Positions 8,954 to 17,850 of a stretch of 41,352 nt of DNA are shown piece after piece (within the stretch, counting starts at the first letter, position 1; every line of letters starts with the position of its first letter). The position numbers were made by a program, and so were the translations under genes. Origin of the DNA: Spirochaetes bacterium RBG_16_49_21 (GTDB taxonomy: Bacteria; Spirochaetota; UBA4802; UBA5550); NCBI GenBank assembly GCA_001829495.1, contig MIBJ01000047.1:1443-42794 (forward strand), written 5' to 3'. The notes beneath the pieces were generated by a model that was given only the letters and a program-made list of their open reading frames with translations, had not been told where the DNA came from and did no database searches.

Positions 8954-9148
8954 TTGACTTTGCCGTTAAATTTTTAAAAATTGATTCGACTTGTTGCGGA
9001 ATTCTAATTCCGCGCCTTAATATGCCCCGGCGGGGGGCTTATAAGGGGCTGCGCCCCTTAACCCGCTATGAAAATTTAATTTTGCAAGAACCTTATCATT
9101 TACTTGAGGAAGACTATTTTAAATTCGTCAGGAATTGTATTCCGCGGG
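8954..9148 (+). promoter_or_regulatory. possible promoter and hairpin-rich leader of the aroA'-aroB' pair
   Basis: TTGACT (8954-8959) is followed after about 16 bases by AAAAAT, a weak -10. Downstream come GCGGAATTCTAATTCCGC (8996-9013, an eight-base stem), AAGGGGCTGCGCCCCTT near 9044-9060, and GGAATTGTATTCC near 9131-9143, just before the start codon. An open frame from 9022 continues into aroA' but its 45 extra residues are encoded by this repeat-like DNA and do not resemble the enzyme. Whether the hairpins regulate anything is unknown. Confidence 0.3.
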
Positions 9149-9156
9149 GTGCCATT

Positions 9157-9921
9157 ATGATCGGTAAAAAAATACGGCTTCAGAGGATAATCGACCGGAA
9201 TACCGGGAAGTCCATCATCGTGCCCATGGATCATGGCGTAACGGTCGGGCCGATCCCCGGGCTCATCGACATCGCCGTAGCGGTGAACAAGGTCGCCAAT
9301 GGGGGAGCTAACGCGATTCTCATGCACAAGGGGCTGGTCGAGACCGGGCATCGGAGCTCGGGCAAGGATATCGGCCTTATTGTTCATCTCTCCGCCAGCA
9401 CGATCCTGGCGCCTGATTCAAACGCGAAGACCCTCGTTTGCACGGTAGAGGAGGCGGTACGGCTCGGCGCGGACGGCGTGTCGATCCACATCAATATCGG
9501 CGCCAATACCGAATCCGAGATGCTGGGTAAGATGGGCGAGGTGTCAAAGTCATGCAGGGATTGGGGCATGCCGCTCCTGGCCATGATGTACACCCGGGGC
9601 GCCAAGATCAAAAATGAATACGACGTGGCAGTGGTCAAGCACGCCGCCAGGGTCGGGGCGGAGCTGGGCGCGGATATCGTGAAGGTCAATTATACCGGCT
9701 CTCCGGAGTCGTTCAGGGAGGTCGTGCAGGGCTGCCCGGTCCCGGTGGTCATCGCCGGCGGAGAGAAGATGGAAACCGATGAGGAGGTACTGGAGATGGT
9801 CCGCGGCTCCATAGAAGCGGGCGGCTCGGGCGTATCCATCGGCAGGAACGTGTTCCAGCACAATAATCCTGAGGCCATAGTAATGAAAATATCGGAAATC
9901 GTGAATGGAATCCGGAAATGA
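9157..9921 (+). CDS. aroA': 2-amino-3,7-dideoxy-D-threo-hept-6-ulosonate synthase (archaeal-type shikimate entry)
   Basis: This class I aldolase-like enzyme makes the C7 precursor used by dehydroquinate synthase II, replacing DAHP synthase in archaea (MJ0400 type) and some bacteria. The mature protein starts [11 protein letters not shown], has 254 residues, and shows the (beta-alpha)8 landmarks: [14 protein letters not shown] near residue 21, [10 protein letters not shown] near 50, the Schiff-base lysine segment [14 protein letters not shown] near 177-190, and [14 protein letters not shown] near 200. ATG 9157 is chosen because the 45 upstream in-frame codons lie in hairpin-rich DNA and are not family-like. 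The stop overlaps the aroB' start by four bases (ATGA). A plain fructose-bisphosphate aldolase of the same fold is less likely given this neighbour. Confidence 0.92.
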
Positions 9922-10922
9922 AGGAAGTATGGCTGCATCTTACCGCCTGGAACAAGAACCTGGTGACGGAGGCGCTCGAGTCCGGGGTTGATGCGATCGT
10001 CACGGCGCCCGAGCACGTTCCCCGGATCAAAGAGCTCGGCAGGATGATGGTCGTGTCCGCGGAAGCGGGAGACCGGAAGATCCCCGAGGACGTCGAAGTC
10101 ATCGTGATTAAGAACAAGGATGACGAGAAGCGGGCGGCGGCGGCGCTTAAATCAAAGACCGTGATCGCGCGCACCACGGACTGGGACATCATTCCGATTG
10201 AAAATCTGATTCCTCAGGGCGGCGACCGCCTCTTTACCTTTGTGAGGAGCCTCGCTGACGCGAAGCTTGCGGCAGGGATACTGGAAAAAGGGGTTGCCGG
10301 CGTGGTACTTGAAACCGGCGATCCGGGCGAAATCTCCCGGGTAGCCGGCTATATCAAGGACCTGGACAACGAATCATATAGTCTTGCGGAGCTTGAGATA
10401 AGGACTATCAAGAATATCGGGATCGGCGACAGGGTCTGCGTGGATACCTGCGGTAATTTGGATCTGGGCGAGGGGCTTCTGGTGGGGAACTCCAGCGGAG
10501 GGCTCTTTCTCGTTCATGCCGAGAATATCGATAATCCCTATGTCGCGCCGCGCCCTTTCAGGATAAACGCCGGAGCGGTACATTCGTATGTACGGGTGCC
10601 GGGCGGAAAGACACGCTACCTGGGAGAGCTCAAGACCGGCGATCAGGTCCTCATCGTGAACAAGGCCGGGGATTCCTATATATCGTACGTGGGCCGCTCA
10701 AAGATCGAGAAGCGGCCGCTCGTGGTCGTGTATGCGGCCGGCAGCGATAAGATTGAATATTCGGTGATACTTCAGAATGCGGAAACGATACGGCTGACCG
10801 CGCCGGACGGCGCCGCGGTAAGCGTGGCCGCACTGCGGCCGGGAGACCATGTTCTCGGCTTTATTGATAAAGGCGGCCGCCACTTTGGCATGGCTGTTGA
10901 TGAAACAATAAGAGAGCAATAA
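9918..10922 (+). CDS. aroB': 3-dehydroquinate synthase II
   Basis: Converts the amino-dideoxyheptulosonate from the preceding enzyme to 3-dehydroquinate by NAD-dependent oxidative deamination and cyclisation. Length (334) fits the family (about 330-370). Recognisable blocks are the N-terminal [20 protein letters not shown], then [20 protein letters not shown] (about residues 172-191), the [20 protein letters not shown] segment, [20 protein letters not shown] (about 214-233) and [14 protein letters not shown]. The four-base overlap with aroA' indicates translational coupling. This enzyme is unrelated to the usual AroB. Confidence 0.95.
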
Positions 10923-10947
10923 TTTTATAAAACACTTCATAAAAACC

Positions 10948-10976
10948 TTGACATGCATGGGTTGAGTTTTTTAGTG
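10948..10976 (+). promoter_or_regulatory. candidate promoter for the 2-oxoacid oxidoreductase operon
   Basis: A perfect TTGACA (10948-10953) is followed after 16 bases by TTTAGT (10970-10975), four of six matches to the -10 consensus. It lies in the 258-base gap after aroB' and about 230 bases before porG. Confidence 0.4.
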
Positions 10977-11019
10977 CCTTTTGTGATATTATCTTGCAAG
11001 AATTGTATTTTTTTAAAAT

Positions 11020-11165
11020 TTTTTAGGGGTCTAAGGGGCGAAGCCCGAGCGAACAGGAGGTTCGCCTGCCGGCATGAACAGGACGTTTCAATAAAGCCGG
11101 CCTTAAAAGCCCCGCAGGGCCCCCCTGCAATCCCAGTTTGGGTTGCGGGCAGCGCCCGCGTATAA
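11020..11165. other. GC-rich hairpin-bearing intergenic stretch
   Basis: The stretch contains GGGGCGAAGCCC, GAACAGGAGGTTC and GGGTTGCGGGCAGCGCCCGCG, three short potential hairpins, and stands out from the AT-rich DNA before it. I see no gene in it. It could be a decayed repeat of the type found elsewhere in the window or a structured leader of the por operon. Confidence 0.35.
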
Positions 11166-11180
11166 ATAAAGCGAGGATTT

Positions 11181-11723
11181 ATGATTGAGGTGAGATTTCA
11201 CGGCAGAGGCGGACAGGGTGCGGTGACATCGGTTGAGATATGCGCCGTTTCCGCGATTGATGACGGCAAGTTCGCGCAGGGCTTTCCCAGCTTTGGGCCG
11301 GAGCGGAGGGGAGCGCCGGTGCTGGCATTTCTGCGGGTTTCGGAAAAACCCATAAAATTGAGATCCAGGATATACGAGCCGGACGTGATCGTTGTTCTCG
11401 ATCCTTCTCTCCTCGCCGCCGAGAACCCGACGCTGGGATTGAAGAAGTCGGGAACGATAGTGATCAATACCGGCAAGAGCGCCCAGGAGATTAAAAACAT
11501 GTTCCCCGGTTTCAGGGTCGCGGCGATTGACGCGTACTCCGTCGCACGGGACGAGCTCGGCATTCCTATCGCCAACACCACGATGATCGGCGCGCTGGTC
11601 AAGGCGACGGACATAATAAGCATGAAATCGATGGAAGACTCCATAACCGAGCGGTTCGGACGGCTTGCCCAGAAAAATATAAACGCCTGCCGCAGGGCAT
11701 ACAATGAAACAGTTATCATTTAA
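11181..11723 (+). CDS. porG: 2-oxoacid:ferredoxin oxidoreductase, gamma subunit
   Basis: The gamma subunit (also named PorC) of a four-subunit pyruvate/2-oxoacid:ferredoxin oxidoreductase, which oxidises the 2-oxoacid to acyl-CoA and CO2. The N-terminus IEVRFHGRGGQGAVTSVEIC (residues 2-21) is the family signature, followed by KFAQGFPSFGPERRGAPVLA (about residues 31-50), and the length (180) is standard. It opens an operon of seven genes in order gamma, delta, alpha, beta, then three diaphorase-like subunits. No cysteine cluster is expected in this subunit and none is seen. Confidence 0.95.
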   Translation: MIEVRFHGRGGQGAVTSVEICAVSAIDDGKFAQGFPSFGPERRGAPVLAFLRVSEKPIKLRSRIYEPDVIVVLDPSLLAAENPTLGLKKSGTIVINTGKSAQEIKNMFPGFRVAAIDAYSVARDELGIPIANTTMIGALVKATDIISMKSMEDSITERFGRLAQKNINACRRAYNETVII

Positions 11724-11741
11724 TCCGACGAGGAGACTGTA

Positions 11742-12029
11742 ATGGCGAAACCAATGGAACAATATAAATGGCACGAGCTCAACGCGGGCTGCGTCATTGA
11801 CGAGCCCGGAAGCGCTTCTGAATACAAGACCGGCTCGTGGCGCGTGCAGAAGCCGGTATGGGACGATTCGAAATGCATCAAGTGCGGGGTATGCTGGATG
11901 TTTTGCCCTGACGCGGCGATATACCAGAAGAAAGACGGTTATTTTGAAGCGAACCTGGATTACTGCAAGGGATGCGGGATATGCGCGAGGGAATGCTGGC
12001 CCTGCGCCATCACCATGGTGGAGGGTTGA
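11742..12029 (+). CDS. porD: 2-oxoacid:ferredoxin oxidoreductase, delta subunit (2x[4Fe-4S])
   Basis: A 95-residue ferredoxin-like subunit that passes electrons from the catalytic subunits to the acceptor. Two complete cluster motifs are visible, CIKCGVCWMFCP (about residues 46-57) and CKGCGICARECW (about 76-87), each CxxCxxCxxxC. The N-terminal half (GSWRVQKPVWDDSKC) is typical of PorD. It starts 18 bases after porG and ends three bases before porA. Confidence 0.95.
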   Translation: MAKPMEQYKWHELNAGCVIDEPGSASEYKTGSWRVQKPVWDDSKCIKCGVCWMFCPDAAIYQKKDGYFEANLDYCKGCGICARECWPCAITMVEG

Positions 12030-12032
12030 GAA

Positions 12033-13223
12033 ATGAACAACAAAAACAAAAAAGGAATCGAGGTATCGATTGCCTTGTCGGAATCGGTCAAGCTCTGCCG
12101 CTTTGAGGCCATATCAGCCTATCCGATCACTCCCCAGACGCATATCGTGGAGCATCTGTCGGAGCTCGTCGCCGAAGGCGAGCTCGCCGCTGAATTCATA
12201 ACAATAGAATCGGAGCACTCGGCGCTCTCCGCCTGCATCGGCGCCTCCGCCGCCGGCGCCCGGACATTCACCTCCACGAGCTCGCAGGGACTTGAGCTGA
12301 TGCATGAGATTCTTTTCATAGCCTCCGGACTCAGGATGCCCATTGTTATGGCAGTCGCCAACAGGGCCCTGTCCGCGCCCCTTTCGATTTGGAATGATCA
12401 CGGCGATGTGATGGCCGCCCGGGATGCCGGATGGATACAGATTTTTTGCGAGAACGGGCAGGAGGCCGTGGATTCGATAATAATCGCCACGAGGTTCGCG
12501 GAGGACCGGAGGGTTCTTCTTCCGGTCATGGTGAACCTGGACGGATTCATATTGAGCCATGTCGTCGAGCCGATCGAATTTCCCGCACAGGAGTCGGTTG
12601 ACGCGTTTCTTCCTTCTTATGATCCGCTGTATACGCTGCACCCTGACCGGCCCCTGACCATGGGAGCGTACGCCTTGCCGGAGCTCTATACCGAGGCGCG
12701 GTACGCCCAGGAGAACGCCCTGATCAATTCTAAAGATGTTATCAATGAGGTCATGGGGGAATTCGGGAAAAAATTCGGAAGGGAGTACCGGGTCGTCGAG
12801 TCCTATAATTGCGAAAAGGCGGACACGGTCTTTGTAGCCATGGGATCCATGAACGAGAATATTATGACCGCTATTGATGAGCTGAAGTCCCGGGGCAAAG
12901 AAGCAGGGCTGGTCAAGATCAGACTCTTCAGGCCGTTCCCGTCCGAAGAGCTGGCTGAAGTCCTTTCCGGGAAAAAGAGGATAATCGTCATTGACCGGGC
13001 GATGCCGGGCGGAGCCATGAACGGGCCGGTTTTCAGCGAGATTTCCTCCCTCGCAAAGATCCGCGGTCTTGACGCGATACTGTCAAACTTCATACTCGGA
13101 CTTGGCGGAAGGGACGTCGTACCTGAAGCGTTTATCGACATTTACAACGAATCGATGGCCAGAACGTCGACTTTCGTAAAAGCTGCAAAAACAAACTACC
13201 GGATTGTTGGAGTAAGAGAATGA
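12033..13223 (+). CDS. porA: 2-oxoacid:ferredoxin oxidoreductase, alpha subunit
   Basis: Alpha subunit (396 residues), carrying the substrate-binding pyrimidine-side domain and the transketolase C-terminal domain. The YPITPQTHIVE motif (about residues 30-40), ITIESEHSALSACIGASAAG (about 56-75) and TSTSSQGLELMHE are typical of pyruvate-type enzymes, as is the segment VIDRAMPGGAMNGP near 323. Pyruvate is the most likely substrate, but branched-chain or 2-oxoglutarate use cannot be excluded by eye. Its end overlaps the porB start by four bases. Confidence 0.94.
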   Translation: MNNKNKKGIEVSIALSESVKLCRFEAISAYPITPQTHIVEHLSELVAEGELAAEFITIESEHSALSACIGASAAGARTFTSTSSQGLELMHEILFIASGLRMPIVMAVANRALSAPLSIWNDHGDVMAARDAGWIQIFCENGQEAVDSIIIATRFAEDRRVLLPVMVNLDGFILSHVVEPIEFPAQESVDAFLPSYDPLYTLHPDRPLTMGAYALPELYTEARYAQENALINSKDVINEVMGEFGKKFGREYRVVESYNCEKADTVFVAMGSMNENIMTAIDELKSRGKEAGLVKIRLFRPFPSEELAEVLSGKKRIIVIDRAMPGGAMNGPVFSEISSLAKIRGLDAILSNFILGLGGRDVVPEAFIDIYNESMARTSTFVKAAKTNYRIVGVRE

Positions 13224-14152
13224 TAATGCCGAATATTGAGCTGTATGCCGCCAATGTAATACCCAAAGAGGAATATGCGGTGTCGGGCCATCGGGCCTGC
13301 CAGGGCTGCGCCGAGATACTCGCGGTCAGGCTCGCCCTGAAGGCGCTCGGCCGCGATACCATATTGACTATGGCCACGGGTTGCATGGAGATCGTATCAA
13401 CCCCGTTTCCCACAACGGACTGGAAGCTCCCGTGGATACACGTTGCCTTTGAGAATGCCGCTGCGGTCGCCTCCGGCGTGGATATAGGGCTTAAAATTCT
13501 CATGAAAAAGGGGAAGGTAAAGAAGAGCGATATCAATATCGTCGCCATAGGGGGCGACGGCGGGACGAGCGATATAGGCCTTCAGTCCCTTTCAGGAGCG
13601 TTCGAGCGATATCATAAGTTCATATATATATGCGTGGACAATGAGGCGTATATGAACACGGGGGTTCAGAGATCTTCCTCCACGCCCTTCGGAGCCATGA
13701 CGACCACGAGCCCTCCCGGAAAGCTGAGCATGGGCCAGCCGACCTGGAAAAAGAACATGGTAAAGATCGCGGTGGCCCACAACATCCCCTATGTGGCGAC
13801 CGCGTGTCCGTCATATCCCTTTGACCTCATCGAGAAGGTGAAGAAGGCAAAGATGGCTGACGGGCCTGCGTATCTGCATATACTCTCCGTATGCCCTACG
13901 GGATGGAGAACGGCGTCGGACCTCTCGATACGCTACGGCCGCCTCGCGGTCGAATCGGGAGTATTCCCTCTGTACGAGGTGGAGAACGGCACGTACCGGC
14001 TCAGTTTAAACCCCGAGCCTTTGAGGCCGGTCACCGACTATTTCAAGGGGCAGGGAAGGTTCAGACATCTCACCGATGAATACATCGACAAGATACAGAA
14101 GAGAACCATAAAAGAATGGGAAGATTTGAAAACCCTGTGCGGCGTCAAATAG
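13220..14152 (+). CDS. porB: 2-oxoacid:ferredoxin oxidoreductase, beta subunit (TPP-binding)
   Basis: Beta subunit (310 residues) that binds thiamine diphosphate and a [4Fe-4S] cluster. The cluster cysteines appear in HRACQGCAE (about residues 23-31), ATGCMEI (about 53) and near the C-terminus in SVCPTGW. The TPP/magnesium motif GGDGGTSDIG...NEAYMNTG spans about residues 112-152. The ATGA overlap with porA shows coupling, and the next gene starts nine bases after its stop. Confidence 0.95.
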   Translation: MIMPNIELYAANVIPKEEYAVSGHRACQGCAEILAVRLALKALGRDTILTMATGCMEIVSTPFPTTDWKLPWIHVAFENAAAVASGVDIGLKILMKKGKVKKSDINIVAIGGDGGTSDIGLQSLSGAFERYHKFIYICVDNEAYMNTGVQRSSSTPFGAMTTTSPPGKLSMGQPTWKKNMVKIAVAHNIPYVATACPSYPFDLIEKVKKAKMADGPAYLHILSVCPTGWRTASDLSIRYGRLAVESGVFPLYEVENGTYRLSLNPEPLRPVTDYFKGQGRFRHLTDEYIDKIQKRTIKEWEDLKTLCGVK

Positions 14153-14160
14153 GAGGATGG

Positions 14161-14628
14161 ATGGATATCGACAAGAAAAAGCTTGATACGATAATCAAGA
14201 AAAACGGCGGCGAGCGTAACCGGATTCTCGCTATATATCAGGATATTCAGTCTGAGTACCGTTATCTTCCGAAAGAGGCAGTTCAGTATGTGTGCGGACG
14301 GCTCGATATCCCGCTTGTCAAGGGATTCGAGGTCGCAACGTTCTATAAGGCACTTTCCCTCAAACCCAAAGGCAAGCATTCAGTCTGCGTCTGCCTGGGT
14401 ACAGCGTGCCACCTCAAGGGCGGCCCCGCAATACTCGAGACCTTCGAGCGCGAGCTCAAGGTCAAGAGGGACGACACCACAGAGGACGGCATGTTTAGCG
14501 TTGATACCGTCAACTGTCTCGGCGCCTGCGCGCTCGCGCCGCTGGTGCGGGTCGATGGAAAAGATTTCGGCAAGACCAGTCCGCCTACCGTTAAGAAAAT
14601 AATCAAAGAATTCAAACACGGAGCCTAA
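14161..14628 (+). CDS. NuoE/HydC-like [2Fe-2S] subunit
   Basis: A 155-residue thioredoxin-fold [2Fe-2S] protein of the NuoE family (24 kDa subunit of complex I, HydC of bifurcating hydrogenases). The four ligands show the family spacing: CLGTAC (C-x4-C) near residue 79 and CLGAC (C-x3-C) near 119. The N-terminal helical part (ILAIYQDIQSEYRYLPKEAV, about 22-41) is also typical. The start at 14161 is chosen over an upstream in-frame ATG inside porB because AGGAGG sits directly ahead (14151-14156). Its partner NuoF-like gene follows after one base. Together with porGDAB it suggests an NAD-linked acceptor module. Confidence 0.93.
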   Translation: MDIDKKKLDTIIKKNGGERNRILAIYQDIQSEYRYLPKEAVQYVCGRLDIPLVKGFEVATFYKALSLKPKGKHSVCVCLGTACHLKGGPAILETFERELKVKRDDTTEDGMFSVDTVNCLGACALAPLVRVDGKDFGKTSPPTVKKIIKEFKHGA

Positions 14629-14629
14629 A

Positions 14630-16483
14630 ATGATACAGTCGCTCGATGATCTTGAAAAGATAAAAGAGGATTTTGCCGGCCGTATAAAGAAATACGGGAA
14701 GACGGTGAAGATATGTTTCGGCACGGGGTGCGTATCGTCCGGTTCTCAGGCGGTGTATGACGGACTTGTCGGCGCCCTTGAAAAAGAATCATTAAACAAA
14801 AAGGTGCGCGTAGTAAAAACAGGCTGTCACGGATTCTGCGAGAAGGGCCCGATTGTCGTTTTCAACGACGATGAGATTTTTTATCAGTCGGTCGGCAAGA
14901 AAAAAATTGAAGAAGACATCGCGCTTCTTCTTGATACGATAAAAAACGGCAAAGTCGCGGATAAACTCCTCTATAAAAGCGCTGACAAATTAAAGAAATT
15001 CGTCTCGACCAAGGAGATACCCTTCTATGCAATGCAGAAAAAGATCGTACTCGATTTGAATGGAGCCATTGATCCGGAGGATATAGATGAATACATTGCG
15101 CACGGCGGCTACAGCGCCCTGCAAAAGGCGCTCACGGCAATGACGCCTGATGAAGTTCTTGATTGGGTGCAGAAGTCGGGCTTGAGGGGAAGGGGCGGCG
15201 GCGGGTTTTCCACAGGGACAAAATGGAAGTCATGCAAGGATGCTCACGGAGGCCCGAAATATATCATGGCCAACGGCGATGAGGGAGATCCTGGCGCGTT
15301 CATGGACAGGTCGCTCATGGAGGGAAACCCCGGCGTTATACTTGAGGGAATGATAATAGGCGGATACACAATCGGCTCGAATCAAGGATATATCTACGTG
15401 CGGGACGAATATCCTCTCGCCGTGAAAAGGCTCGGCATCGCGTTAGAGCAGGCGGTGAAATACGGCTTTCTCGGAAAAAATATATTCAACTCCGGATTTG
15501 ATTTCGACATAAAAATAGTCAGGGGCGGCGGAGCGTTTGTCTGCGGCGAGTCGACCGCTCTCATGTCCTCGCTTGAGGGAAAGTCGGGAGAGCCGAGGGC
15601 CAAGTATGTCCATACTGTTGAAAAGGGCCTGTGGGACAAGCCCAGCAATTTGAATAATGTCGAGACATGGGCCTGCGTCCCGGCGATCATAAACAGGGGA
15701 TGGCAATGGTTCGCATCGATAGGAAGCGAAGGGAGCAAGGGGACAAAGGTTTTCTCCCTGGTCGGCAAGGTTAACAATACGGGGCTGATCGAGGTTCCCA
15801 TGGGGACAACCCTACGCCAGATAATCTTCGATCTTGGTGACGGCATCCAAAACAATAAGGAGTTCAAGGCAGTGCAGACTGGCGGCCCCTCCGGCGGCTG
15901 CATACCGAAAGAATATCTCGACACTGCGGTGGATTTTGACACGCTTTGGGAGCTCGGCTCAATGATGGGATCCGGCGGCATGATTGTCATGGATGACAAA
16001 AACTGCATGGTCGATGTCGCACGATATTTCCTGAAGTTCCTCGTTGAGGAGTCATGCGGGAAGTGCGTGCCCTGCAGGGAGGGGATCAGGCGCATGCTTG
16101 AGATAGTCGAGAGAATATGCGACGGCGAGGGAGATGAAGGAGACATCGCGCACCTCAAGGAGCTCGGGAGGGCCGTCAACATCGGGTCCCTGTGCGGCCT
16201 CGGCCAGTCAGCATCCAATCCGGTTCTTTCAACCCTGAGATATTTCATGGATGAATACGAGGCTCATATAGCGCATAAGAAGTGTCCTGCCGGAGTGTGC
16301 AAGCCTCTGATCAACTATACCATTTTGGATAATTGCACGGGATGTACGCTGTGCGCACGGGAATGTCCCTCAAACTGCATTATCGGCGACAAGAAAAAGC
16401 CCCATACCATAGACACGAAAAAGTGCATCAAGTGCGGCATGTGCTATGAGGTTTGCAAGTTTGGCGCGGTTAACGTCGTATGA
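14630..16483 (+). CDS. NuoF/HydB-like NAD(H)- and FMN-binding subunit with extra Fe-S domains
   Basis: A 617-residue flavoprotein of NuoF/HydB type. Domains in order: N-terminal thioredoxin-like [2Fe-2S] (CFGTGC near residue 27, CHGFC near 66); NADH-binding glycine-rich loop GLRGRGGGGFSTGTKW (about 184-199); NGDEGDPGAFMDR (about 214-226); FMN segment GGGAFVCGESTALM (about 298-311); SLBB-like domain; [4Fe-4S] motif SCGKCVPCREG (about 474-484) with a distal GSLCGLGQ; and a C-terminal 2x[4Fe-4S] ferredoxin (CTGCTLCAREC and CIKCGMCYEVC). This layout is that of HydB of electron-bifurcating hydrogenases, BamH-like and NAD-reducing enzymes, and is longer than complex I NuoF. The stop overlaps the next frame (ATGA), but the preferred next start is 16498. 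Confidence 0.94.
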   Translation: MIQSLDDLEKIKEDFAGRIKKYGKTVKICFGTGCVSSGSQAVYDGLVGALEKESLNKKVRVVKTGCHGFCEKGPIVVFNDDEIFYQSVGKKKIEEDIALLLDTIKNGKVADKLLYKSADKLKKFVSTKEIPFYAMQKKIVLDLNGAIDPEDIDEYIAHGGYSALQKALTAMTPDEVLDWVQKSGLRGRGGGGFSTGTKWKSCKDAHGGPKYIMANGDEGDPGAFMDRSLMEGNPGVILEGMIIGGYTIGSNQGYIYVRDEYPLAVKRLGIALEQAVKYGFLGKNIFNSGFDFDIKIVRGGGAFVCGESTALMSSLEGKSGEPRAKYVHTVEKGLWDKPSNLNNVETWACVPAIINRGWQWFASIGSEGSKGTKVFSLVGKVNNTGLIEVPMGTTLRQIIFDLGDGIQNNKEFKAVQTGGPSGGCIPKEYLDTAVDFDTLWELGSMMGSGGMIVMDDKNCMVDVARYFLKFLVEESCGKCVPCREGIRRMLEIVERICDGEGDEGDIAHLKELGRAVNIGSLCGLGQSASNPVLSTLRYFMDEYEAHIAHKKCPAGVCKPLINYTILDNCTGCTLCARECPSNCIIGDKKKPHTIDTKKCIKCGMCYEVCKFGAVNVV

Positions 16484-16497
16484 ACAAGGAGCCTGCA

Positions 16498-17208
16498 ATG
16501 ATTGAGTTTACAATAGACGGCAAAAAGGTCAAGGCAACGGAGGGGGAGTTTATCCTGCCGGTGGCCCTTCGCGAGGGGTTTGACATTCCGACGCTGTGCC
16601 ATCATGAAGCGCTCGGCTCGGACGGCAGGTGCAGGATTTGCGTCGTCGAGGTCAAGAGGGGCAGCCGGAAGAGGATAGTGACATCATGCCTGTATCCGGT
16701 CGCTGACGGAATCGAGGTATCAACGAACGCGCCGGATGTTATGCTCGTGCGCAAGTCCGTGCTCGAGCTGCTCTATGCCCGGTGTCCTGAAGCCGAAGTT
16801 CTCGGGCATCTTGCGAAAAAGTATGGAGTCGAGAATGTCCGCTATTCCAAGGATCATGACAAGGGCAAGTGCATACTCTGCAATATCTGTATTAGAGCCT
16901 GTGCGGAGATTGTCGGGGTATCCGCTCTGGGCTTCAGCGGAAAGGGGATGTCTAAGAAGGTCACCACCCCCTTTGATGAGCCCTCGGACACCTGCATAGC
17001 CTGCGGCGCGTGCGTGGTAGCCTGTCCGACCGGCCACATCTTCATGAAAGACGATAAAGGCGTGAGGACGATTTGGAAAAAGAAATTCCCTCTTGCGCAA
17101 TGCCCGGAATGCTCGCGGTTCCACGCGCCCGTGGAGCAGCTTCAGTATATATCGAAGGTGACGAATGTTCCGCTTGAAACCCTGATGGTCTGCCAGGACT
17201 GTCGATAG
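16498..17208 (+). CDS. short NuoG/HydA-N/HoxU-like iron-sulfur subunit without catalytic domain
   Basis: A 236-residue protein matching only the N-terminal Fe-S part of NuoG or of [FeFe] hydrogenase HydA. A [2Fe-2S] domain comes first (LCHHEALGSDGRCRIC, then TSCLYP), followed by two [4Fe-4S] motifs, CILCNICIRAC and CIACGACVVACP. The HxxxCxxCxxxxxC cluster site that normally lies between them is absent. The C-terminus adds a CPEC...CQDC pair spaced by about 33 residues. There is no H-cluster or molybdopterin domain, and no hydrogenase gene nearby. It probably links the por delta subunit to the NuoEF-like pair. ATG 16498 is preferred over 16480 because AAGGAG lies seven bases upstream. Confidence 0.9.
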   Translation: MIEFTIDGKKVKATEGEFILPVALREGFDIPTLCHHEALGSDGRCRICVVEVKRGSRKRIVTSCLYPVADGIEVSTNAPDVMLVRKSVLELLYARCPEAEVLGHLAKKYGVENVRYSKDHDKGKCILCNICIRACAEIVGVSALGFSGKGMSKKVTTPFDEPSDTCIACGACVVACPTGHIFMKDDKGVRTIWKKKFPLAQCPECSRFHAPVEQLQYISKVTNVPLETLMVCQDCR

Positions 17209-17216
17209 TTGATCCC

Positions 17217-17328
17217 CAAGCCCCCCAACCCCCCGGAGAGGGGCTAATATTTGAAATGGAGATTAAACTGTCGCATTTTAATTCATTTTTCAGCTTTTTT
17301 AAGTCCCCCTTTGGGGGATTTAGGGGGC
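17217..17328. repeat. family C doubly inverted repeat, copy 1
   Basis: Left arm CCCCCCAACCCCCCGGAGAG and right arm AAGTCCCCCTTTGGGGGATT with GGGGGC are imperfect inverted copies across an AT-rich centre. Copies occur at 25161-25356 and, modified, at 36151-36240. Its right end touches the ribosome site of the next gene. Confidence 0.7.
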
Positions 17329-17340
17329 GAGGAGGCGGCT

Positions 17341-17850
17341 ATGAAAGAATTCATTAAGCTTTTGCACGAAGCCGAGACGATTGAGCAGGACGGCCACCGG
17401 TATTACTTGAGCTCAATGGAAAAAACGAAAAACAGGTTTGCGAAGGAGCTTTTCAGGAAGCTGTCCGAAGAGGAGATCGTTCATTATAACAGGGTCAGGC
17501 AGATTGCGGGAATGCTGGCTGAAGGAAAAGAAATAACAAAAAACGACATACAGCTCAGCGGAAAAAGCGGGAGGATATTCGATTCCCTCATCAGGGACAT
17601 TAAATCCGATCAGCCTGCGGGCAGCGAGATTGAGGCGTTGCAATTTGCCAAAAAGCTCGAGCAAAAGAGCATCGCGCATTATCAAAACGCCATGAAATCG
17701 GCCGGCGACGCTATGGTTATGGAATTCCTTTCGCAGCTTGTCATTGAGGAGGAGGGGCATTTCCGCTCGATCAGCGAATCAATTGAATATATTGAGGATC
17801 CTCAGGCCTGGTTTTCGAGGAAAGAAAGAAGCCATTACGACGGCGCGTAA
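17341..17850 (+). CDS. rubrerythrin-like ferritin-fold protein
   Basis: A 169-residue four-helix protein with two repeated halves, each holding carboxylate and EExxH-type positions: EAETIEQDGHRYY and LSEEEIVHYNRV in the first, KLEQKSIAHYQNA and VIEEEGHFRSI in the second. These are the di-iron ligands of the rubrerythrin/ferritin-like family, usually involved in peroxide or oxygen defence of anaerobes. There is no rubredoxin-like CxxC tail, so an electron donor must be separate. The start at 17341 has GGAGG five bases upstream (17331-17335), directly abutting repeat C1; the open frame upstream of it only translates the repeat. It follows the por operon by 132 bases and may share its transcript. 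Confidence 0.88.
   Translation: MKEFIKLLHEAETIEQDGHRYYLSSMEKTKNRFAKELFRKLSEEEIVHYNRVRQIAGMLAEGKEITKNDIQLSGKSGRIFDSLIRDIKSDQPAGSEIEALQFAKKLEQKSIAHYQNAMKSAGDAMVMEFLSQLVIEEEGHFRSISESIEYIEDPQAWFSRKERSHYDGA

What the first reader, a model, noticed from the sequence alone, without database searches (positions are those of the whole stretch)
11181..17208. 2-oxoacid oxidoreductase genes joined to a NuoEF/HydBC-like module: possible NAD-linked or bifurcating enzyme
A complete porG-D-A-B set is followed without a break by NuoE-, HydB- and NuoG/HydA-N-like genes, with gaps of 0-18 bases and ATGA overlaps. The NuoF-like protein has the extended HydB layout (N-terminal thioredoxin-like [2Fe-2S] and C-terminal 2x[4Fe-4S]) of flavin-based bifurcating enzymes. 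No hydrogenase, formate dehydrogenase or complex I gene is present, so electrons from 2-oxoacid oxidation appear to be given to NAD directly, or split between NAD and another carrier. Known relatives are HydABC hydrogenases and the BamGH-C group of benzoyl-CoA reductase; I know of no described enzyme with this exact set.
Basis: partly seen in the sequence, partly recalled or inferred. Interest (0 to 1): 0.72.

Follow-up and report, generated by a model that had tools for sequence, protein, structure and literature searches.

The report
Predicted electron-bifurcating pyruvate oxidoreductase (Por-Bfu)
Seven tightly packed genes look like one enzyme that oxidises pyruvate and splits the electrons between NAD and ferredoxin; this enzyme type was predicted in print in 2022 but I found no report of its purification, and here it appears to be inherited and exchanged as a block across several bacterial phyla.

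Summary
In detail: porG-D-A-B run into bfuC-B-A on one strand (11181-17208), with gaps of at most 18 bases or ATGA overlaps. The novelty claim does not: Schut et al. 2022 (PMC9304861) named this set Por-Bfu, a predicted, uncharacterised Type 2 member of the BfuABC (HydABC-like) bifurcating family. The window meets its sequence features as tested (one weak domain match, SLBB; clade placement not testable): complete BfuB and BfuC ligands, including His546 of the unusual B2 cluster, and a short BfuA with only A1, A2 and A4. BfuA and BfuB match best the bifurcating aldehyde oxidoreductase Wor-Bfu (9mqx). New here: 30 other genomes carry porB-bfuC-bfuB-bfuA (23 of them read with flanks); POR and Bfu halves share one history (distance correlation 0.965); the window's copy groups with a Deltaproteobacteria-labelled lineage, not its own order; after DHQS-II, relatives carry Por-Bfu, single-chain PFOR or neither, which points to pyruvate as substrate. 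A second set, VorB-type oxidoreductase genes joined to bfuCBA, occurs in five genomes. Bifurcation, complex formation and direction remain inferred.

The parts
11181..11723 (+). porG (POR gamma subunit), 180 aa
   Evidence: TIGR02175 213 bits (cut-off 81) and PF01558
11742..12029 (+). porD (POR delta, 2x[4Fe-4S] ferredoxin-like), 95 aa
   Evidence: TIGR02179 102.8 bits (cut-off 60); eight Cys conserved in 23 of 23
12033..13223 (+). porA (POR alpha), 396 aa
   Evidence: PF01855 and PF17147; PorA_Arch 513 bits against cut-off 550; only match of its genome at E<=1e-70 in the porA search
13220..14152 (+). porB (POR beta, TPP-binding), 310 aa
   Evidence: NF008819 pyruvate synthase PorB 414 bits, over its cut-off of 405; PF02775; C27, C30, C55 and C225 in 31 of 31
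14161..14628 (+). bfuC (NuoE/HydC-like, thioredoxin-like [2Fe-2S], cluster C1), 155 aa; an alternative start at 14116 overlaps porB
   Evidence: PF01257; four Cys in 31 of 31; best PDB matches HydC chains, 9mqx_C third
14630..16483 (+). bfuB (NuoF/HydB-like: FMN, NAD(H) and ferredoxin site; clusters B1-B5), 617 aa
   Evidence: PF01512, PF10589, Fer4; B2 ligands C459, H546, C552, C557 in 31 of 31 and C497 in 9 of 31; best PDB match 9mqx_B 757 bits
16480..17208 (+). bfuA (short HydA-N/NuoG-N-like: [2Fe-2S] A1 plus two [4Fe-4S], A2 and A4; no His-ligated A3 motif seen; C-terminal CxxC...CxxC), 242 aa
   Evidence: Fer2_4 and Fer4 domains; best PDB match 9mqx_A; twelve cluster Cys in 31 of 31, C-terminal Cys in 25-29 of 31
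17341..17850 (+). rubrerythrin-like gene 132 bases downstream (start chosen at the ATG 17341); possibly protective, not counted as a subunit
   Evidence: PF02915 38 bits; a homologue lies next to Por-Bfu in 5 of 6 own-order loci besides the window, in none of the three sister loci L222, L223, L049
9918..10922 (+). 3-dehydroquinate synthase II (archaeal-type aromatic pathway), marks the left edge of the site
   Evidence: NF002627 437 bits over cut-off 392; Por-Bfu also lies beside it in G010 and G001; in G002, G003, G004 and G011 a single-chain PFOR lies downstream of it

Best explanation
A seven-subunit cytoplasmic complex, Por-Bfu. PorGDAB oxidises pyruvate with CoA on TPP. Electrons pass through the PorB and PorD [4Fe-4S] clusters into BfuA (A4-A2-A1), then B1 and FMN of BfuB. 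The BfuBC core splits four electrons between NAD+ (hydride from FMN) and ferredoxin (via C1-B2-B3-B4), as proposed for HydABC and Wor-Bfu. It should be reversible. Shown here: gene set, ligands, conserved order, shared descent of the two halves, and presence at a site where relatives have PFOR. Inferred: assembly into one complex, the A4 entry point, obligate NAD+Fd coupling, and direction (most likely oxidation in this organism, which also has an RnfC-like gene in a possible Rnf cluster that could re-oxidise ferredoxin).
For: Domains and cut-offs. B2 ligands mapped onto NiFe-HydB, all five present, conserved across 31 loci except C497; PMC9304861 reports Thr at that position in about two-thirds of BfuB sequences. 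Type 2 BfuA. Best solved match of BfuA and BfuB is the bifurcating aldehyde oxidoreductase 9mqx. 24 of 24 units in one order on one strand. POR against Bfu distance correlation 0.965 over 23 units, 0 of 9999 permutations as high, 0.95-0.99 inside each of four clades. Separate POR and Bfu trees give the same four clades, and an own-order clade holding the window is rejected in both. PFOR or Por-Bfu after DHQS-II in different relatives. 4 of 7 Por-Bfu genomes lack single-chain PFOR against 2 of 32 others. With six sets of assumed concentrations the pyruvate couple lies at -441 to -322 mV, around the -390 mV mean of Fd and NAD. Wor-Bfu and T. sibiricus Nfn-Bfu are reported as tightly coupled (PMC9304861).
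Against: PMC9304861 calls Por-Bfu uncharacterised and my paper searches found no later biochemistry. In the Dehalococcoides mccartyi CBDB1 native-gel complexome PorA, PorB and PorG comigrated, PorD was not detected, and the section read names no Bfu subunit with them (PMC6005880); a stable seven-subunit complex is thus not supported there, though that gel also split other complexes and I did not verify that CBDB1's POR is the Por-Bfu one. At standard potentials pyruvate (-500 mV) could reduce Fd without coupling. The window's genome keeps a single-chain PFOR elsewhere (G000:C1), and G007, which lacks one, has a second stand-alone porGDAB-like set (L201). PorG and PorA score under some pyruvate equivalog cut-offs.
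Confidence: 0.72

Rival explanations
1. Two enzymes in one operon: an ordinary Fd-linked POR, and a BfuABC that works with another donor (for example the rubrerythrin-like protein next door, as PMC9304861 proposes for BfuA-less Rub-Bfu) or as an NADH:ferredoxin module.
For: POR alone is a complete enzyme; the Dehalococcoides complexome saw PorA, PorB and PorG without a named Bfu partner; a rubrerythrin-like gene follows bfuA and recurs in the own order.
Against: The bfuA is the Type 2 form without a catalytic domain, which needs an outside catalytic subunit. One order in 24 of 24 units. Halves share history even within clades. The rubrerythrin-like gene is missing beside most Por-Bfu units: adjacent in 5 of 24 other loci searched.
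Confidence: 0.15
2. A non-bifurcating NAD-linked POR, passing electrons only to NAD+ as in NAD-dependent formate dehydrogenase or NAD-reducing NiFe hydrogenase.
For: NuoEF-like modules of non-bifurcating enzymes do this (PMC9304861).
Against: The same paper says such homologues lack the B2-B5 clusters; their ligands are all present here, with the B2 His.
Confidence: 0.08
3. The same complex run in reverse as a confurcating pyruvate synthase (NADH plus reduced Fd plus acetyl-CoA plus CO2 to pyruvate), as PMC9304861 suggests for its Por-Bfu organisms. This overlaps with the best explanation and differs in direction only.
For: At micromolar pyruvate the couple reaches about -320 mV and the reverse becomes favourable (assumed concentrations).
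Against: In relatives the site holds a single-chain PFOR, and four Por-Bfu genomes have no single-chain PFOR; this does not settle direction.
Confidence: 0.3
4. The substrate is another 2-oxoacid, such as 2-oxoisovalerate or an aryl pyruvate linked to the neighbouring aromatic-pathway genes.
For: Neighbouring ADH synthase and DHQS-II; PorA is below the pyruvate equivalog cut-off.
Against: PorB passes the pyruvate equivalog cut-off; PFOR lies downstream of DHQS-II in G002, G003, G004 and G011; in G005 and G007 the unit lies on another contig than DHQS-II, and in G020 no DHQS-II was found at E<=1e-30.
Confidence: 0.1

Closest known systems
Por-Bfu of Dehalococcoides mccartyi 195 and others (Schut et al. 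2022, PMC9304861; predicted, uncharacterised)
   Same: Four POR subunits plus BfuABC in one cluster; Type 2 BfuA with A1, A2, A4 only; complete BfuBC core.
   Different: Different lineage (RpoB nearest a Bacillota-labelled MAG among the named genomes compared); sequence clade distinct from the Chloroflexota-phylum copies (BfuB 58-59% and BfuA 43-44% identical to four of them). The D. mccartyi 195 sequences themselves were not compared by name.
Wor-Bfu, bifurcating tungsten aldehyde oxidoreductase (PDB 9mqx)
   Same: Best PDB match for BfuA and BfuB, third for BfuC; same short BfuA without the His-ligated cluster, with a C-terminal CxxC in the aligned part.
   Different: Its catalytic subunits are a tungsten aldehyde oxidoreductase, not a TPP 2-oxoacid oxidoreductase.
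HydABC [FeFe] and HydABCSL [NiFe] bifurcating hydrogenases
   Same: BfuBC core with the same FMN and Fe-S set.
   Different: No H-cluster domain, no SL subunits, no A3 His-ligated cluster.
Phenylglyoxylate:NAD+ oxidoreductase PadEFGHI (known NAD-linked 2-oxoacid oxidoreductase)
   Same: An OFOR that hands electrons to NAD.
   Different: Pad subunit models score far under their cut-offs here; the NAD module PadH is not of NuoF type (recalled).

Membership tests
Bfu family (BfuABC), PMC9304861 | BfuB with FMN/51K, NADH_4Fe-4S and C-terminal ferredoxin domains; BfuC thioredoxin-like [2Fe-2S] | tested here: met
   PF01512 134 bits, PF10589 111 bits, Fer4, PF01257; InterPro-to-Pfam mapping recalled
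Bfu family (BfuABC), PMC9304861 | SLBB domain in BfuB | tested here: inconclusive
   PF10531 21.1 bits, E 0.00028, under its 27-bit cut-off, between the FMN and NADH_4Fe-4S domains
Bfu family (BfuABC), PMC9304861 | B2 [2Fe-2S] ligands including the conserved His, and B3-B5 clusters that non-bifurcating homologues lack | tested here: met
   C459, C497, H546, C552, C557 map onto NiFe-HydB C438, C476, H525, C531, C536; C497 is Cys in 9 of 31, the other four 31 of 31
Bfu family, Type 2 | BfuA lacks A3 and A5, keeps A1, A2, A4 | tested here: met
   Only a [2Fe-2S] and two [4Fe-4S] motifs plus a C-terminal CxxC pair; no His-cluster motif
Por-Bfu | Four POR subunits (TPP site, extra [4Fe-4S]) in the same gene cluster | tested here: met
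Por-Bfu | BfuB in clade 45 (or 35, 44) | tested here: inconclusive
   The paper's sequences were not held; Chloroflexota-phylum por-linked copies form a separate clade from the window's
Por-Bfu | Co-transcription as one operon | not testable with these tools
   Packing and terminator counts at chance level only
Bfu family | Tightly coupled reduction of NAD+ and ferredoxin | not testable with these tools
   needs purified enzyme
[FeFe] hydrogenase HydABC | H-cluster domain in HydA | tested here: not met
   BfuA is 242 aa and matches only positions 1-210 of 571 of NF040763
Complex I NADH module (NuoEFG) | Full-length NuoG and NuoF without extra clusters | tested here: not met
   BfuA ends after the ferredoxin domains and a short C-terminal stretch; BfuB carries additional N- and C-terminal clusters
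Phenylglyoxylate:NAD+ oxidoreductase (Pad) | PadE/F/G/I subunits over their cut-offs | tested here: not met
   164.5 vs 300, 73 vs 150, 304 vs 700, 237 vs 700 bits

The most novel reading that the evidence does not exclude
2-oxoacid oxidoreductases as a class, not just POR, are recruited by the BfuCBA core: besides Por-Bfu, a VorB-type set (vorB-vorA-vorC-bfuC-bfuB-bfuA plus a 4Fe-4S protein) is conserved in five genomes. Anaerobes then switch between ferredoxin-only and NAD+ferredoxin 2-oxoacid oxidation by exchanging whole enzymes, visible as PFOR or Por-Bfu at one chromosomal site. In vivo the 2-oxoacid couple would behave as a mid-potential bifurcation substrate like H2 or formate.
Probability: 0.4. 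Interest if true: 0.65.

Novelty: new member of a known kind. Interest (0 to 1): 0.42.

Why it matters
Pyruvate oxidation is a central electron source of anaerobes and is usually taken to yield only reduced ferredoxin (general knowledge). If Por-Bfu bifurcates, energy budgets of organisms that rely on it change (four of the relatives with it show no single-chain PFOR), and reversible pyruvate synthesis from NADH plus ferredoxin becomes possible. The conserved seven-gene block, its occurrence at a site where relatives carry PFOR, and the VorB-type analogue make the 2022 prediction directly testable. The member itself is not a new kind of system.

Tried and rejected
Hydrogenase, formate dehydrogenase and complex I readings were rejected on domain content. 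A pure NAD-linked enzyme was rejected as best reading because the B2-B4 ligands are complete. [quoted passage not shown] The rubrerythrin as an eighth subunit was not adopted: adjacent in 5 of 6 own-order loci and none of the other por-linked loci searched, with one more about 3 kb away in L233. The BfuA AlphaFold model (4 sequences, mean pLDDT 67.5) was too weak to describe the C-terminal Cys element; Foldseek with it ranked 9mqx_A first (TM 0.44, rmsd 16). Promoter and terminator scans: terminators near chance (10 against 9.1 expected), promoters 13 against 7.3 (sd 2.8), not interpreted.

Limits of the counts. Por linkage was judged only in fetched loci. The Bfu tree used 24 por-linked units and 13 other Bfu units picked by hand out of 201 units found; the POR tree used 4 of the 7 stand-alone POR loci, those with all four genes detected. 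Inside the window's clade the two trees differ: the window sits with L049 in the Bfu tree (support 71) and with L222/L223 in the POR trees (100). The Fisher test (p 0.0055; 0.0105 if the truncated G015 is counted as Por-Bfu) is post hoc and treats related, partly incomplete genomes as independent. The AU tests were run after seeing the tree.

Papers: PMC9304861 abstract, section 4 part 1, section 5 parts 1-2, section 6 part 1 and passages; PMC6005880 section 13 and passages; PMC11406978 and PMC7382037 passages; PMC9973337 outline with abstract only; supplements not read. 'Uncharacterised' rests on PMC9304861 (2022) and on searches; in one search only PMC9304861 holds the term Por-Bfu, PMC9232219 holds 'bifurcating pyruvate' and was not opened, and PMC12542780 of one search was not opened. 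That the VorB-type set is not named rests on the main text of PMC9304861 and on the listings of searches, whose other papers were not opened except PMC7382037 and PMC11406978.


Full report
OBSERVATION. porG (11181-11723), porD (11742-12029), porA (12033-13223) and porB (13220-14152) are followed by a NuoE/HydC-like gene (14161-14628), a NuoF/HydB-like gene (14630-16483) and a short NuoG/HydA-N-like gene (16480-17208), all on the + strand, with gaps of 18, 3, 8 and 1 bases and two ATGA overlaps. Family scans give POR gamma, delta, alpha and beta; PorB passes NCBI's pyruvate synthase PorB cut-off (414 against 405 bits), while PorA (513 against 550) and PorG (216 against 225 for the closest pyruvate model) fall a little short. 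The HydB-like protein has PF01257, PF01512, PF10589 and Fer4 motifs in the order claimed; its SLBB match is weak.

WHAT IT IS. The closest solved structures for the BfuA- and BfuB-like proteins are chains of 9mqx; the BfuC-like protein matches two HydC chains better and 9mqx third. The Foldseek listing titles 9mqx an electron-bifurcating tungstopyranopterin aldehyde oxidoreductase. Schut et al. 2022 (PMC9304861; [quoted passage not shown] They cite transcript data from Dehalococcoides mccartyi 195 for one operon.

LIGANDS. The B2 cluster ligands of NiFe-HydB given in that paper (C438, C476, H525, C531, C536) map in the alignment to C459, C497, H546, C552 and C557 of the window protein. Across the window and 30 other por-linked loci, C459, H546, C552 and C557 are present in 31 of 31, C497 in 9 of 31 (the paper reports Thr there in about two-thirds of BfuB sequences); the B1, B3, B4 and B5 cysteines, four BfuC cysteines and twelve BfuA cysteines are in 31 of 31; the four C-terminal BfuA cysteines in 25-29 of 31; eight PorD cysteines in 23 of 23. 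BfuA has a [2Fe-2S] domain and two [4Fe-4S] motifs but no His-ligated cluster motif, the Type 2 pattern.

DISTRIBUTION. Por-linked BfuB was sought in the loci fetched, not in every match. In one search (39 relatives) 7 of 20 loci, the window's own included, have porB upstream and one more (L013) is cut by the contig end; (344 genomes of the phylum, 110 with a match) 0 of 19 new loci; (251 genomes of the phylum of an Anaerolineaceae-titled MAG) 11 of 30 loci; (195 genomes of the phylum of a MAG titled Deltaproteobacteria) 12 of 30 loci; (40 named loci) 2, L049 and L068, of which L049 is the same genome as one. That makes 30 other genomes. All 24 units read with flanks, the window included, keep one order on one strand; porD was not detected in one of them (L237).

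SHARED HISTORY. Mean POR and mean Bfu distances over 23 units correlate at 0.965; 0 of 9999 permutations reach this, and the correlation is 0.95-0.99 inside each of four clades (L237 left out for lack of porD). Concatenated trees of the Bfu half and the POR half give the same four clades: window plus three copies from the Deltaproteobacteria-titled phylum; five own-order copies; five Chloroflexota-phylum copies; and nine further copies from the Deltaproteobacteria-titled phylum with L068. Within the window's clade the branching differs between halves. In the Bfu tree several other Bfu types (L136, L037, L050, and the L213/L214 pair) fall among these clades at forks mostly under 95, so the por-linked Bfu halves are not shown to be one clade. 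The window copy is 62-77% identical per subunit to L222 (G771) but 41-62% to the same-genus G005, whose RpoB is 89% identical. Holding the window with its own order is rejected for both halves (run after seeing the tree). The simplest reading is that the unit moved between phyla as a block; old duplication with loss is the alternative. The contig is not mis-binned: PheT and flanking genes keep identity and order with same-genus genomes.

THE SITE. Between 3-dehydroquinate synthase II and a pentapeptide-repeat gene the window carries this unit. G001 (same genus) carries the own-order Por-Bfu there, in the other orientation, split over two contig ends; in G010 the own-order type directly follows DHQS-II. 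G002, G003 and G004 carry a single-chain PFOR in the interval (TIGR02176, 1913-1926 bits), with a dehydrogenase-like gene beside it in G003 (scanned) and a similar ORF in G002; G011 has a PFOR next to DHQS-II; G005 has only the dehydrogenase-like ORF and bears its Por-Bfu elsewhere; in G007 nothing in about 8 kb after DHQS-II matches the window's por, bfu or pentapeptide genes, and in G008 the contig ends about 3 kb after it. Among 39 relatives, 6 lack single-chain PFOR: G001, G005, G007 and G010, all with Por-Bfu, and G021 and G026 without. So 4 of 7 Por-Bfu genomes lack it against 2 of 32 others (Fisher p 0.0055; 0.0105 if truncated G015 counts as Por-Bfu; post hoc, related and partly incomplete genomes). 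The window genome keeps one PFOR on another contig, and G007 has a second, stand-alone porGDAB-like set (L201). This supports pyruvate as the substrate and PFOR-like function without proving it.

MECHANISM. Most likely pyruvate oxidation by PorGDAB feeds BfuA and the BfuBC core, which reduces NAD+ and ferredoxin together. With E0' -500 mV for pyruvate and -500 and -280 mV for Fd and NAD (Table 1 of PMC9304861) and six sets of assumed concentrations, the pyruvate couple lies at -441 to -322 mV, on both sides of the -390 mV mean, so either direction is possible. Against it: in the D. mccartyi CBDB1 complexome PorA, PorB and PorG comigrate, PorD was not seen and no Bfu partner is named in the section read (PMC6005880).

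EXTENSION. Five genomes (G613, G609, G611, G607, G039) carry a second kind: a P-loop-like gene, vorB (NF005507 507 bits, cut-off 399, scanned in L203 only), korB- and korC-like genes, then bfuC-bfuB-bfuA, a 4Fe-4S protein and a short unknown gene. The main text of PMC9304861 does not mention Vor, isovalerate, oxoglutarate or indolepyruvate enzymes.

VERDICT. A real, conserved enzyme cluster; a new member of a published but biochemically untested kind; interest moderate.

Noticed in passing
L202, L203, L204, L205, L209: VorB-type 2-oxoacid oxidoreductase genes directly upstream of bfuC-bfuB-bfuA, followed by a 4Fe-4S protein and a short unknown gene: a second OFOR-Bfu combination in five genomes.
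   Followed up: partly
L034, L035: HdrA-like flavoprotein and FlpD/MvhD-like gene directly before bfuC-bfuB and a short bfuA (families scanned in L034; L035 by similarity clusters): a possible Hdr-Bfu.
   Followed up: no
L037:5648-8899: 1084-aa protein with a BfuA-like N-terminus followed by flavoprotein and ferredoxin domains, next to bfuB and bfuC.
   Followed up: no
L213, L214: bfuC-bfuB-bfuA inside a CODH/ACS gene cluster (acetyl-CoA synthase, CdhD and RACo scanned in L213; prismane/CODH family in L214), a possible Bfu link to the Wood-Ljungdahl enzyme.
   Followed up: partly
window 10922-17850 and L250-L258: The stretch after DHQS-II holds PFOR, own-order Por-Bfu, the foreign-type Por-Bfu or neither in different relatives: a site of repeated replacement of the pyruvate oxidoreductase.
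   Followed up: yes
window 17341-17850: Rubrerythrin-like gene after bfuA; homologues next to Por-Bfu in 5 of 6 own-order loci but only 24-30% identical to the window's.
   Followed up: partly
window 9022-10922: 2-amino-3,7-dideoxy-D-threo-hept-6-ulosonate synthase and 3-dehydroquinate synthase II, the archaeal-type start of aromatic biosynthesis (recalled), in a bacterium whose RpoB is closest to a Bacillota-labelled MAG among the named genomes compared.
   Followed up: no
G000:C65 (L238, L239), G000:C35 (L241), G000:C82 (L240): The same genome holds further NuoF/BfuB-like genes beside formate dehydrogenase alpha-like genes (two on C65; one, cut by the contig start, next to a 1048-aa BfuB-like protein on C35), a NiFe hydrogenase large-subunit-like gene (C82) and an RnfC-like gene (C65, under its cut-off).
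   Followed up: partly
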